DNA of 64,000 nucleotides from a virus. The notes under the pieces were generated by a model, which searched no databases, had not been told where the DNA came from, and was given only the letters and a program-made list of their open reading frames with translations. Made by a program: the position numbers and the translations under genes. Each line of letters starts with the position of its first letter. The first letter of the stretch is position 1. The stretch is taken from the IMG/VR virus record IMGVR_UViG_3300042991_000159, positions 35,796-99,795 of that record; one strand, 5' to 3'. Positions 56,272-60,212 of this stretch are shown here, in pieces.

Positions 56272-56933
56272 TGAATAATTTCAGTGAAAAAAACTACTCA
56301 GAGTTCTTCAAGGAAGACCTCTATGGTGGGTTCGTTGATTATTTGATTAACGAATACGGAGTCAAATATTGTTTGGCTGTTCTTCGGAACGATGATTTAA
56401 TTACCAAGAAGGGAATACATCCTGTATTTCAGAAAGACTTTAAAGTTTTTCTTTCCCTTAATCCTCTGATAAAGAAAGAGTTTGCAAGAAATCACAATCG
56501 TTTCATGCAACTCCGGAATATAGCAGATGAAAATCTTGCTTTTCCTATTGATACTGCTGATGAATCAGTAATGGTTCAACAAAAGATTAGAATACCGGAG
56601 TTTATTTCTGTTAAAGACGATATTATTCGTGCAACAAAGGAAATGAAACGTTCCGCAGCTCCTATGAAAGGACAAATTCTGAAAGGCGAATGGAAAGAAA
56701 AAAGGTATCATTTACCAAAACGCCTTACTATCCATCTCAAAAAGGGATTAGCTATGAGAATGAGAAAGACAACTCTCAATTTTATGGTTAATTCCAGACA
56801 AGAGGCAATCTCTATTATGATTGATCGTTTTACTGACAATGTTGCGTATGCTACAATCCAGAACGAAGAAGAGTTTGTATTTGTAAAACCGAGAAATGGA
56901 AAAATCAAAAGGAGTCGTAAACTTCGTGGTTAG
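56271..56933 (+). CDS. Protein of unknown function, 220 aa
   Basis: Start taken at the ATG overlapping the previous stop (TAATG). Helical N-terminal half, with DYLINEYGVKYCLAVLRND, then a basic region and a C-terminal beta part rich in Arg/Lys (RMRKTTLNFMVNSRQEAISI). A nucleic-acid-binding role is possible; no family recognised. Confidence 0.7.
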   Translation: MNNFSEKNYSEFFKEDLYGGFVDYLINEYGVKYCLAVLRNDDLITKKGIHPVFQKDFKVFLSLNPLIKKEFARNHNRFMQLRNIADENLAFPIDTADESVMVQQKIRIPEFISVKDDIIRATKEMKRSAAPMKGQILKGEWKEKRYHLPKRLTIHLKKGLAMRMRKTTLNFMVNSRQEAISIMIDRFTDNVAYATIQNEEEFVFVKPRNGKIKRSRKLRG

Positions 56934-57219
56934 ATATAACAGTGATCCGGTAGCCGGTATCTCTGAAAACCACTGTTCTGATATATTATCTCTTACTGAC
57001 ACTGATGAAAGAGGTTTTGATACTCAGAATGAAGCTATATTATTTTTGTCTGAATGTACGAGTCCGATAACCTGTCTTGAAGAACTCGTTCCGGAATTAA
57101 AGAATTTAAAGTGTAGTAAAAACTTTAAGTTCTTGCTTCCCGAACGAAATATTAAACCGAAACATCAATTGATGGCTTCAATGGACTATGTGTTACACTC
57201 TACAAAGAGATGGGAATAG
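56896..57219 (+). CDS. Protein of unknown function, 107 aa
   Basis: Not recognised. Overlaps the preceding gene by 38 bases. Beta start (GVVNFVVRYNSDPVAG), several cysteines (ENHC, SECTSPITC, NLKC) and a Lys-rich end. It is the last gene before the 500-base intergenic region that carries the tmRNA. Confidence 0.65.
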   Translation: MEKSKGVVNFVVRYNSDPVAGISENHCSDILSLTDTDERGFDTQNEAILFLSECTSPITCLEELVPELKNLKCSKNFKFLLPERNIKPKHQLMASMDYVLHSTKRWE

Positions 57220-57227
57220 TATAGTAT

Positions 57228-57363
57228 AGGAATATTGCTTGTTCAACTAACAATTAATTATTATTAATTATCTTTGGGTAGTCATTGGTAAACGTTCTTT
57301 ATTTGATTGTTACGAAAAATCCTATGATACAGATTTCAATAGAACGAGCAATATTCCTTTTTT
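57228..57363 (+). other. Intergenic element closed by a 17 bp helix with T run (E3)
   Basis: AGGAATATTGCTTGTTC (57228-57244) pairs with GAACGAGCAATATTCCT (57342-57358), 17 bp with one G-T pair, followed by TTTTTT. The enclosed 97 bases contain a 7 bp hairpin (AATTAAT/ATTAATT). As a whole it may stop upstream transcription. It shares TGATTGTTA and TGATACA with element E1. Confidence 0.45.
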
Positions 57364-57370
57364 AAAATAT

Positions 57371-57691
57371 GGGCGTATAATTGGATTTGATTGCGTTGAT
57401 TGGTAAATGTGGCAACCAAGCTGGTGAGCTTTGTACACGCAAACATAAGTGGAGACAATAAAGTTGTACCCATGTACACAAACTACTACTCACGAGTAGC
57501 AGCTTAGTACGGACTTGTCAGAGAGTTGGCAACAGAACTCTGACACATTGTAAGTTTGTTCAAACTATAAATGAACTGGTGGAGCTGACAGATTCATTTC
57601 TGTCTCCTAGTGAATGACAGTAAACTGTCTATGGTTGTAAACTATATTTATGCGACAATGTAAGACGGGGGTTCGATCCCCCCTACGTCCA
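57371..57691 (+). ncRNA. ssrA: Phage-encoded tmRNA
   Basis: The ends form a tRNA-like domain: acceptor GGGCGTA pairs with TACGTCC (one G-T) and discriminator A. TTGGATTTGAT near the 5' end is the tmRNA D-loop hallmark. The T arm is GGGGG-TTCGATC-CCCCC. Between them lie hairpins and an H-type pseudoknot (GACAG/CTGTC with loop ATTCA pairing TGAAT), plus a hairpin at 57516-57545. A short reading frame ends ...YYSRVAA then TAG (stop 57505-57507); its resume codon is GCA at 57439 or GGA at 57451. It would rescue stalled ribosomes with host SmpB. CCA is not encoded. Confidence 0.92.
57439..57507 (+). other. Proteolysis-tag reading frame inside the tmRNA
   Basis: From GCA at 57439 the frame gives 22 codons, from GGA at 57451 it gives 18 (starting GDNKVVP), ending in SRVAA and TAG. 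An A at -4 is present before both candidates. Bacteroidetes tags usually begin with Gly, which favours GGA. A terminal VAA fits recognition by ClpXP-type proteases; it is longer than usual bacterial tags. Confidence 0.75.
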
Positions 57692-57720
57692 CAAATAGTA
57701 TTAACTAAATATAAAAATGT

Positions 57721-58230
57721 ATGAAACTCAAAGTAGCTAAGTGGCAAGAGAAATCAGGAAGTAAGCTTGAAGCTGAGGGACTGATTCGAAGGAATAGTAA
57801 TAAACCTGAATATGGTAGCCTGATGTTGACAGCAAATACAGTTGCAGTCAATAAAGGATATTTGAACTTCAAAACAAAAATTGGATTCATTACTGCAAAG
57901 GTTGAAGACTTAATGAAACTGATTGAAAATAAGAAACTCTCAGAAGGAAGTGATTTCAGTGCATTGGTAGCACCACATCGGATTGTTACACTGGAAAAAG
58001 TATCTAGTGAAATGACTGATGATGATAGGGGATATACTCCTAAAATCAATCCTTCAACCGGAGAAATTCTTACCAGAGGTGGAGAAACTATCTTCAGAAA
58101 AACTGAAGTAGTAGAACAAGGTTCTGATGTTATAGATTTACTTGTATCACACGATACTGTACCGGTAGTAGATCAGGCAAATACAGAATTTATTAAAACC
58201 AGTAAACAGAATATAGTGGCTGAATTGTAA
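57721..58230 (+). CDS. Early protein before DNA polymerase, possible ssDNA-binding protein, 169 aa
   Basis: Beta-rich first half (KLKVAKWQEKSGSKLEAEG, then TANTVAVNKGYLNFKTKIGF) with an acidic, flexible C-terminal part. TAACTAAATA lies 9 bases upstream. A single-stranded DNA-binding or replication-accessory role is suggested by location only. No OB-fold signature can be assigned with certainty. Confidence 0.7.
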   Translation: MKLKVAKWQEKSGSKLEAEGLIRRNSNKPEYGSLMLTANTVAVNKGYLNFKTKIGFITAKVEDLMKLIENKKLSEGSDFSALVAPHRIVTLEKVSSEMTDDDRGYTPKINPSTGEILTRGGETIFRKTEVVEQGSDVIDLLVSHDTVPVVDQANTEFIKTSKQNIVAEL

Positions 58231-58316: not shown

Positions 58317-60212
58317 ATGGATGTTGAGAAAAAAATTTGGGTATATGATCTTGAACAATTAAGGAATTTTCATTCTGGAACCTTCATGGATCGTGATGAC
58401 CCAACTAATGTGAGAGTATTTGTTATCCATAAATCAAGAAATGATATGTTTGAGTACTACAAATTCCTTAAAGAAGAAGTAGCTGGACTCATTGGATTTA
58501 ATTGTATAAATTATGATTATCCGTTATTACATTTCTTTATGGCAATAATGACTATTGCAAATGAAAAAACTACAGCAGATGGATTTAATGAATTATTATC
58601 TGAAGAGTCCCAGAGAATTATAAATACGGAATATTCGGCTATACCTGAGAGAGATACAAGGATACCACAATTAGATTTATATCGAATACATCATTTCGAT
58701 AATAAGGCTAAGATGACGAGTTTAAAATATCTACAAATAAATATTAAATATCATAATGTACAGGATATTCCTTTTGATGAAGATCATTATATTACTGAGG
58801 AAGAGATACCAGAGATTCTTGCTTATAACTTTAATGATGTAGATTCAACCAGAGAGTTCTATTTTCTGAGTGTGGATATGATAGAATTAAGAAAGAAATT
58901 AAGTACAAAATATAGAATAAATTTACGTAATGCAAATGACCCTAAGATTGGTCAGGAGATATTTGGAAGGGAGATTGCGAGGAAATTAAATATAAATTAT
59001 AAAGTTCTCAGAGATATGAGAACATATCGGAGGTCAATAAATTTAAAGGATTGTGTACTTCCACAAATAAAATTCAAGAGCAAAGAGTTCAATAGAATTT
59101 TAGAATTTTTTAAACAGACTACAATAGTAACAACATATAAAGCATTTGAAGAGTCAGTAATATATAAGGGATTTAAGTATGATTACGGAACCGGAGGTTT
59201 ACACGGATGTATAGATTCAGGAGTATATGAATCTGATGAATATTATGAGATCATAGATATTGATGTAAGCTCATATTATCCCAATATAGCGATTCAAAAC
59301 AATTTCTATCCTCAACATTTGGGTGAATCTTTTGTTGAGGTATATCGAGAGATAATTGAGCTTAAGAACGAAGCAGGAAGAATAGGAGATAAAACAACTA
59401 AATCAGGTATGAAATTATCTGCTAATGGAGTTTATGGTAAAAGTAATGATCAATATTCGTTATTTTATGATCCAAAATATACTATGAGAGTAACTATCAA
59501 TGGTCAACTCATGTTATCTATGTTGGCTGAAAGTTTAGCATTGACGTTAGGAGAATTAGTTATTTTACAAGTAAATACTGATGGGATAACTATTAAAATA
59601 CCAAGAAATTATAGAGGTGTAGTAGATAGGATATGTAAAGAGTGGGAAGAGGAAACAGGATTAACGCTTGAGTATGCTCAATATAAGAAGATGGTTATTA
59701 GAGATGTAAACAACTATCTAGCTATTACTACTGATGATAAAGCAAAACCTAAAGGATGTTTCGAGATCATACCAATGCAGAATGGAGCTATCGCATATAA
59801 TAAAAACTGGTCCATGAGAGTTGTACCTAAAGCACTTCATGCGTATTATATAGATGGTATTAAACCAGAAGATTTTGTAGTAACACACGACGATATATAT
59901 GATTTTACTATCGGATTTAGAGCAAAAGGTAGTTGGGATGTATGGGCAACATTTATTGAAAATTGTAACAAAGTCAAGGTAAAACAACAAAAGACTCTTA
60001 GATATTTTATGTCTAAGACAGGTGCAGTTCTTACTAAAGAAAATCGTGATGATGGTAGAATAATATCTCTCGAAGCAAGTAGAACAACTACTATATTCAA
60101 TAAATATGTTGATTTATCAATGGAAGAATATAACATTGATTATGGATATTATTTGAGAGAAATTAATAAAATTATAAATGCTGTAGACGATGGACAACTT
60201 AAATTATTTTAA
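58317..60212 (+). CDS. DNA polymerase, family B, with 3'-5' exonuclease, 631 aa
   Basis: Exonuclease motifs: VYDLEQ (D11, E13), GFNCINYDYP (about 61-70) and YNFNDVD (about 170-176). Polymerase motifs: A in DIDVSSYYPNIA (314-325), B in KLSANGVYGKS (366-376) and C as NTDG (420-423). All catalytic aspartates are present. The enzyme is compact compared with many family B polymerases. It would copy the phage genome with proofreading. The upstream terminator and 3-base gap to the next gene suggest it leads the replication operon. Confidence 0.93.
   Translation: MDVEKKIWVYDLEQLRNFHSGTFMDRDDPTNVRVFVIHKSRNDMFEYYKFLKEEVAGLIGFNCINYDYPLLHFFMAIMTIANEKTTADGFNELLSEESQRIINTEYSAIPERDTRIPQLDLYRIHHFDNKAKMTSLKYLQINIKYHNVQDIPFDEDHYITEEEIPEILAYNFNDVDSTREFYFLSVDMIELRKKLSTKYRINLRNANDPKIGQEIFGREIARKLNINYKVLRDMRTYRRSINLKDCVLPQIKFKSKEFNRILEFFKQTTIVTTYKAFEESVIYKGFKYDYGTGGLHGCIDSGVYESDEYYEIIDIDVSSYYPNIAIQNNFYPQHLGESFVEVYREIIELKNEAGRIGDKTTKSGMKLSANGVYGKSNDQYSLFYDPKYTMRVTINGQLMLSMLAESLALTLGELVILQVNTDGITIKIPRNYRGVVDRICKEWEEETGLTLEYAQYKKMVIRDVNNYLAITTDDKAKPKGCFEIIPMQNGAIAYNKNWSMRVVPKALHAYYIDGIKPEDFVVTHDDIYDFTIGFRAKGSWDVWATFIENCNKVKVKQQKTLRYFMSKTGAVLTKENRDDGRIISLEASRTTTIFNKYVDLSMEEYNIDYGYYLREINKIINAVDDGQLKLF

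What the first reader, a model, noticed from the sequence alone, without database searches (positions are those of the whole stretch)
57371..57691. Phage-encoded tmRNA (ssrA) with a long proteolysis tag
The tRNA-like ends, the TTGGATTTGAT D-loop signature, a T arm, an H-type pseudoknot and a short frame ending in VAA and stop agree with tmRNA. It is encoded between early genes of a crAss-like phage. tmRNA is known from some other phages; I know of no established role in this group. It could secure ribosome recycling after host mRNA decay or mark phage or host proteins.
Basis: partly seen in the sequence, partly recalled or inferred. Interest (0 to 1): 0.85.

Follow-up and report, generated by a model that had tools for sequence, protein, structure and literature searches.

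The report
tmRNA gene in a crAss-like phage
This gut-type bacterial virus carries its own copy of tmRNA, the bacterial RNA that frees stuck ribosomes and tags unfinished proteins for destruction, with a tag about twice as long as its likely hosts use; viral tmRNAs are already known, but close relatives of this virus have shrunk theirs to a stub that may block the host's version.

Summary
ARAGORN and Rfam RF00023 (72 bits, E 4.6e-26, cut-off 47) both place a complete one-piece tmRNA at 57371-57694. It has a 7-bp acceptor with G3-U70 and A73, a T arm, long H2, and an 18-codon tag GDNKVVPMYTNYYSRVAA-stop. The window lies in a 99.8-kb Crassvirales genome (capsid PF23898, muzzle PF25731) with 24 tRNAs for all 20 amino acids. 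The tmRNA sits between a 107-aa gene and an SSB-position gene, a slot shared across the clade. Homologues have covarying helices and synteny, so it is maintained, not a recent host copy. It most likely performs trans-translation with host SmpB, AlaRS and protease; no phage SmpB was found.

It is a new member of a known kind: phage tmRNAs are published, and RefSeq already annotates SsrA in other Crassvirales.

Two points go further. (1) Crassvirales tags are 13-43 aa, against 9-10 aa in nearly all of 30 Bacteroidota chromosomal tmRNAs. (2) In one sister subclade the same slot holds an 86-119-nt RNA reduced to the tRNA-like domain, with a covarying helix, resembling mycobacteriophage DS6A's RNA, a form reported to inhibit tmRNA. 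No expression or function was tested.

The parts
57371..57694 (+). tmRNA (ssrA) gene, one-piece form
   Evidence: ARAGORN; Rfam RF00023 72 bits, E 4.6e-26; fold z -3.7
57371..57377 (+). acceptor 5' strand GGGCGTA (G3 pairs U70)
   Evidence: sequence; pairs kept in all six clade tmRNAs at positions 1-3, two-sided changes at 4 and 7
57378..57391 (+). D-loop region with TTGGATTTGATT
   Evidence: sequence; Rfam alignment
57418..57438 (+). candidate pseudoknot PK1 (S1 AAGC/GCTT, S2 GTG/CAC)
   Evidence: not above chance here (26/60 shuffles), stronger in sister tmRNAs, where both stems covary
57451..57507 (+). tag reading frame GDNKVVPMYTNYYSRVAA + TAG; UA at -5/-4 before resume codon GGA
   Evidence: 14 of 15 Crassvirales tmRNAs have UA at -5/-4
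57517..57544 (+). 8-bp hairpin GTCAGAGA.../...TCTGAC downstream of the tag
   Evidence: minimum-energy fold
57667..57683 (+). T arm GGGGG-TTCGATC-CCCCC
   Evidence: sequence; covarying pairs
57684..57694 (+). acceptor 3' strand TACGTCC, discriminator A73 (57691), then CAA; CCA not encoded
   Evidence: sequence
57228..57363 (+). upstream element: 17-bp stem enclosing ~97 nt, followed by TTTTTT, ending 7 nt before the tmRNA
   Evidence: fold z -4.5, 0 of 200 shuffles as stable
56896..57219 (+). 107-aa gene of unknown function, conserved upstream neighbour
   Evidence: tblastn in 9 relatives
57721..58230 (+). 169-aa gene at SSB position, conserved downstream neighbour (function inferred from position only)
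   Evidence: alignment A1; no Pfam/PHROG match
58317..60212 (+). DNA polymerase gene
   Evidence: phrog_1252 E 3.7e-157

Best explanation
The locus is a working phage tmRNA. Shown by sequence: a complete tRNA-like domain with alanine identity elements (G3-U70, A73), a resume codon in the normal context, an open tag ending in VAA, and covarying helices conserved at the same place in sister phages. Inferred: host RNase P and the CCA-adding enzyme mature it; host AlaRS charges it; host SmpB and EF-Tu bring it to ribosomes stalled on broken or stopless mRNA; the ribosome switches to the tag and stops at TAG; a ClpXP-type protease removes the product. The likely benefit is keeping ribosomes available during infection, when mRNA and tRNA are being cut or run short. 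The phage also carries its own tRNAs for all 20 amino acids. The longer tag keeps a degradable end but differs from host tags; why is unknown.
For: Rfam and ARAGORN hits. Fold z -3.7. Six-member alignment with 20 of 45 predicted pairs showing two-sided change with pairing kept, and G3-U70 in all six. Same gene slot in window, L008, L013, L016, L017, L018/L019. UA at -5/-4 of the resume codon in 14 of 15 Crassvirales tmRNAs, the position of the E. coli U85-A86 signal (the E. coli comparison is from memory). Nearly all tags end in AA or VA. 24 tRNAs covering all 20 amino acids in the same record. No SmpB gene in nine Crassvirales records, while controls ring, so host SmpB is implied. Independent occurrence in Fpv3, phi14:2 and others.
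Against: No expression, charging, SmpB binding or tagging data. The score (72 bits) is well below Bacteroidota chromosomal tmRNAs (105-198 bits); parts of the pseudoknot region are poorly resolved. phi14:2 and Fpv3 have a tmRNA but no detected tRNA, so tmRNA does not simply travel with tRNA sets. Several sequenced Crassvirales records lack a detectable tmRNA, so it is not essential to the lifestyle.
Confidence: 0.75

Rival explanations
1. Interference: the phage RNA competes with host tmRNA for SmpB and so dampens or redirects host quality control. In its extreme form, in relatives, only the tRNA-like domain is kept as a decoy.
For: In one subclade (L010/L015, L011, L097) the same slot holds an 86-119-nt RNA: 7-bp acceptor, AYGGTGAC, 7-9-bp H2, T arm. 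It was found nowhere else in 2.06 Mb of phage loci and never in 3 shuffled sets; the H2 sequences differ but pair in all three. The tree nests it among full-tmRNA phages with support 1.0. Mycobacteriophage DS6A has a TLD-only RNA, and such an RNA inhibits tmRNA in E. coli (PMC4131195; PMC11915505).
Against: The window copy keeps a full tag frame, resume-codon context and degradable end, none of which a decoy needs. Only three distinct reduced sequences are known. Inhibition by them is untested.
Confidence: 0.12
2. Retargeting: the longer tag gives tagged proteins a different fate, such as another adaptor, slower decay, or use of the tag itself.
For: Tags are 13-43 aa in 15 Crassvirales tmRNAs against 9-10 aa in nearly all of 30 Bacteroidota chromosomes. 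K-V-[VI]-P-M-Y is shared by window, L008 and L016 despite codon changes mostly at third positions (6 of 9 variable sites in the first ten codons).
Against: Nearly all keep a C-terminal AA/VA, as an ordinary degron does. The motif rests on three related sequences. Third-position excess is only marginal and is not seen in the L013/L017/L018 set.
Confidence: 0.1
3. Passenger: a host ssrA fragment picked up by transduction or left from an integration site, without function.
For: tmRNA genes are common integration sites and fragments occur in prophages (PMC9004378).
Against: Complete gene; identity to Bacteroidota tmRNAs only 43-50%, no closer than to distant phage tmRNAs, while sister phages share 62-66%. 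Conserved position and covariation across the clade.
Confidence: 0.03

Closest known systems
Bacteroidota chromosomal tmRNA (RF00023, one-piece)
   Same: Complete one-piece form, resume codon often G, tag ending in AA
   Different: Host tags 9-10 aa such as GENNYALAA; phage tag 18 aa; only 43-50% nucleotide identity
SsrA of Crassvirales cr7_1, cr10_1, cr273_1, cr124_1, cr130_1, cr131_1 (RefSeq)
   Same: Same virus order; phage-encoded tmRNA already annotated
   Different: Where tested (cr7_1, cr10_1, cr273_1) those are circularly permuted two-piece genes (RF04321) with 13-15-aa tags; the window gene is one-piece
tmRNA of Flavobacterium phage Fpv3 and Cellulophaga phage phi14:2
   Same: One-piece tmRNA in cultured crAss-like phages
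   Different: Tags of 35 and 38 aa; not annotated in the deposited records
tmRNAs of mycobacteriophages (Bxz1 group, Wildcat), Bacillus phage G, methylophage Melnitz
   Same: Phage-encoded tmRNA, function unproven (PMC4131195, PMC9004378)
   Different: Unrelated phages; the Melnitz form is two-piece under a glutamine riboswitch
Mycobacteriophage DS6A TLD-only RNA
   Same: Resembles the reduced RNAs in sister phages L010, L011, L097
   Different: The window RNA is full length; DS6A itself was not fetched or aligned here

Membership tests
tmRNA, RF00023 | Covariance model score above gathering over full model | tested here: met
   72.0 bits vs 47, positions 1-374
tmRNA, RF00023 | tRNA-like domain: acceptor, T arm, D-loop without anticodon arm | tested here: met
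tmRNA, RF00023 | Alanine identity G3-U70 and A73 | tested here: met
   GGGCGTA/TACGTCC + A; G-U in all six clade members
tmRNA, RF00023 | Resume codon, short open tag, stop, degradable C-terminus | tested here: met
   GGA...VAA-TAG; UA at -5/-4
tmRNA, RF00023 | Pseudoknot PK1 upstream of the tag | tested here: inconclusive
   Not above chance in the window, covarying in sister phages
tmRNA, RF00023 | Binds SmpB, is charged, adds a tag | not testable with these tools
   needs experiment; no phage SmpB found
Permuted tmRNA, RF04321 | 3' half precedes 5' half in the gene | tested here: not met
   Normal order; no RF04321 hit in this record
TLD-only RNA (DS6A type), for relatives L010/L011/L097 | tRNA-like domain with no tag or pseudoknots | tested here: inconclusive
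   86-119 nt, acceptor + AYGGTGAC + H2 + T arm; a very short tag such as GCC-AUG-UAA in L011/L097 cannot be excluded, and sequence comparison with DS6A itself was not done
Crassvirales | Crassvirus capsid and muzzle genes | tested here: met
   PF23898 E 2.6e-128, PF25731 E 6.7e-196

The most novel reading that the evidence does not exclude
In this crAss-like clade one gene slot carries either a full tmRNA with a phage-specific tag or, in one subclade, a tRNA-like stub derived from it that acts as a decoy for SmpB. The phages would thus have switched from supplying to suppressing trans-translation.
Probability: 0.3. Interest if true: 0.75.

Novelty: new member of a known kind. Interest (0 to 1): 0.42.

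Why it matters
What phage tmRNAs are for is unanswered. This clade offers a natural comparison: the same slot holds full tmRNAs in some phages and tRNA-like stubs in close relatives. Cultured crAss-like phages with tmRNA (Fpv3, phi14:2) exist, so deletion and tag-swap tests are possible in principle. The stubs are a further, independent candidate for an RNA that blocks ribosome rescue.

Tried and rejected
blastn of the tmRNA region against INPHARED: no match. Exact T-arm pattern in viral contigs: none. SSB-position protein in INPHARED and in bacterial genomes: none, so no prophage or direct host link was found. Tag motif pattern in bacterial genomes: three hits, all apparently in protein-coding sequence, none in a tmRNA. 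The idea that L010's reduced RNA is an ordinary tRNA: ARAGORN finds none in L010, Rfam reports no tRNA there at its cut-off, and no anticodon arm is conserved; note that its RF00023 score (22.9 bits) by itself is no better than that of short tRNA-sized hits in bacteria, so the case rests on synteny and covariation. The idea that the L010 group is permuted: rejected, both acceptor strands are in normal order and RF04321 does not hit G008 or G051. A second tRNA-like end in L097 (3543-3773, acceptor 6 of 7, fold z -2.7) remains undecided. A tmRNA-plus-tRNA package hypothesis is weakened by phi14:2 and Fpv3, which have no detected tRNA.

Full report
Observation. ARAGORN finds one tmRNA and no tRNA in the window, at 57371-57692 on the + strand, with tag GDNKVVPMYTNYYSRVAA*. 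Rfam cmscan gives a single hit in 64 kb: RF00023 at 57371-57694, 72.0 bits, E 4.6e-26, cut-off 47, full model. The sequence shows the acceptor GGGCGTA/TACGTCC with G3-U70 and A73 at 57691, the T arm GGGGG-TTCGATC-CCCCC, the D-loop TTGGATTTGAT, resume codon GGA at 57451 and stop TAG at 57505. CCA is not encoded (CAA). The fold is more stable than all 100 shuffles, z -3.7.

Context. The window is positions 35796-99795 of a 99,795-base virus record. It is a crAss-like phage: major capsid PF23898 E 2.6e-128, muzzle PF25731 E 6.7e-196, portal and terminase PHROGs, terminase closest to Crassvirales. The rest of the record holds 24 tRNAs covering all 20 amino acids at 12.8-22.3 kb. The tmRNA lies alone, far from that cluster, between a 107-aa gene and a 169-aa gene at the SSB position, just before DNA polymerase and helicases. 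Directly upstream is a 17-bp stem with a T6 tail, z -4.5. Stems of a similar kind are seen upstream of the tmRNA in L016 and upstream of the reduced RNA in L010.

Relatives. A DNA polymerase search gave 67 IMG/VR loci. Full tmRNAs pass the Rfam cut-off in 11 of 50 records searched. In the nearest clade the tmRNA occupies the same slot in L008, L013, L016, L017, L018 and L019. The six-member alignment has 45 predicted pairs, 20 with two-sided changes that keep pairing, and an invariant G3-U70. The H-type pseudoknot is not significant in the window sequence alone. In L008/L016, L018/L017 and L013 both stems covary at the same place: GAGU/ACUC with GAAC/GUUC, GGUA/UACC with UGGUU/AACCA, and GGUAG/CUACC with UUGUUC/GAACAA.

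Tags. Thirty Bacteroidota chromosomal tmRNAs have 9-10-aa tags such as GENNYALAA or ANDYSYAMAA; one ARAGORN frame, in L162, looks misassigned. Fifteen Crassvirales tmRNAs have tags of 13-43 aa. Fourteen have UA at -5/-4 of the resume codon, which supports the frames, and nearly all end in AA or VA. Window, L008 and L016 share K-V-[VI]-P-M-Y. Of nine variable nucleotide sites in the first ten codons, six are third positions, which is only mild evidence for selection on the peptide (counted by eye). The window tmRNA is 62-66% identical to its nearest phage homologues and 43-50% to host-phylum tmRNAs, so it is not a recent host copy.

Reduced forms. In L010 (identical to L015 in this region), L011 and L097 the slot instead holds an RNA of 86, 119 and 97 nt: a 7/7 acceptor, A-Y-GGTGAC, an H2 of 7-9 contiguous pairs starting at once, a two-base spacer, and a 5-bp T arm. 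A descriptor of this kind hits only these places in 2.06 Mb (both strands of the phage loci) and nothing in three shuffled sets. The H2 strands are unrelated in sequence (AUAUAUAG/CUAUGUAU, GCAACAC/GUGUUGU, GCACGAUC/GAUCGUGU) but all pair. L010 and L011 keep G3-U70 and A73; L097 has G3-C70 and U73 and by the usual rules should not be charged with alanine. The tree puts them in one subclade (support 1.0) nested among full-tmRNA phages. Hudson et al. describe mycobacteriophage DS6A as TLD-only and note that a similar molecule, chargeable or not, inhibits tmRNA (PMC4131195; PMC11915505). The reduced RNAs are therefore best read as decoys or as relics under constraint; three sequences are too few to decide.

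Function. No SmpB gene was found in nine Crassvirales records, so the phage RNA would use host SmpB. The simplest reading is ordinary trans-translation that frees stalled ribosomes and removes truncated proteins during infection. That the phage carries tRNAs for all 20 amino acids suggests translation is under strain in its host, but phi14:2 and Fpv3 carry tmRNA with no detected tRNA, so the link is loose.

Prior knowledge. Phage tmRNAs are established: 402 of 18,146 phage genomes in one survey, 53 of 133 unique forms two-piece (PMC9004378), and 79 unique bacteriophage sequences in the 2025 database (PMC11915505). RefSeq already annotates SsrA in six Crassvirales records, which are permuted where tested. 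No paper on tmRNA in Crassvirales was found in the library searched. Hence: a new member of a known kind, with an interesting clade around it.

Noticed in passing
L010:3128-3213, L011:686-804, L097:3783-3879: Reduced tRNA-like RNAs of 86-119 nt in the tmRNA slot of one sister subclade, with covarying H2; possible SmpB decoys.
   Followed up: yes
L097:3543-3773: A second tRNA-like end in series (GGAGCGA...GCGCTCC, U73) enclosing a segment that could encode GIGSVPMYPYKV; the homologous segment in L010 lies in a plain 14-bp hairpin.
   Followed up: partly
NC_031904.1 82006-82420 (Flavobacterium phage Fpv3; L116, L126): tmRNA with a 35-aa tag in a 2.3-kb stretch without any annotation.
   Followed up: partly
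KC821624.1 4031-4502 (Cellulophaga phage phi14:2; L109, L127): tmRNA (46 bits, just under the Rfam cut-off) with a 38-aa tag, not annotated and overlapped by small predicted CDSs that are probably spurious.
   Followed up: partly
NC_055889.1 93093-93328 (cr53_1; L176): Permuted tmRNA over the RF04321 cut-off, not annotated.
   Followed up: no
L130 (cr53_1 region) and L129 (cr10_1 region): Three hatchet ribozymes and a RAGATH-14 RNA in cr53_1, a RAGATH-9 RNA in cr10_1.
   Followed up: no
L021, L022, L058: tmRNA tags of 33-43 aa with a loosely shared pattern GN...(L)GS..DL...EL, long for tmRNA tags.
   Followed up: partly
L006 12774 to L007 4339 (record positions 12.8-22.3 kb): 24 tRNA genes covering all 20 amino acids in the window's phage; relatives with the reduced RNA have only 1-3.
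   Followed up: partly
window 57228-57363: 17-bp stem with a loop of about 97 nt and a T6 tail just upstream of the tmRNA; stems of a similar kind precede the tmRNA in L016 and the reduced RNA in L010. Terminator, processing element or separate small RNA.
   Followed up: partly
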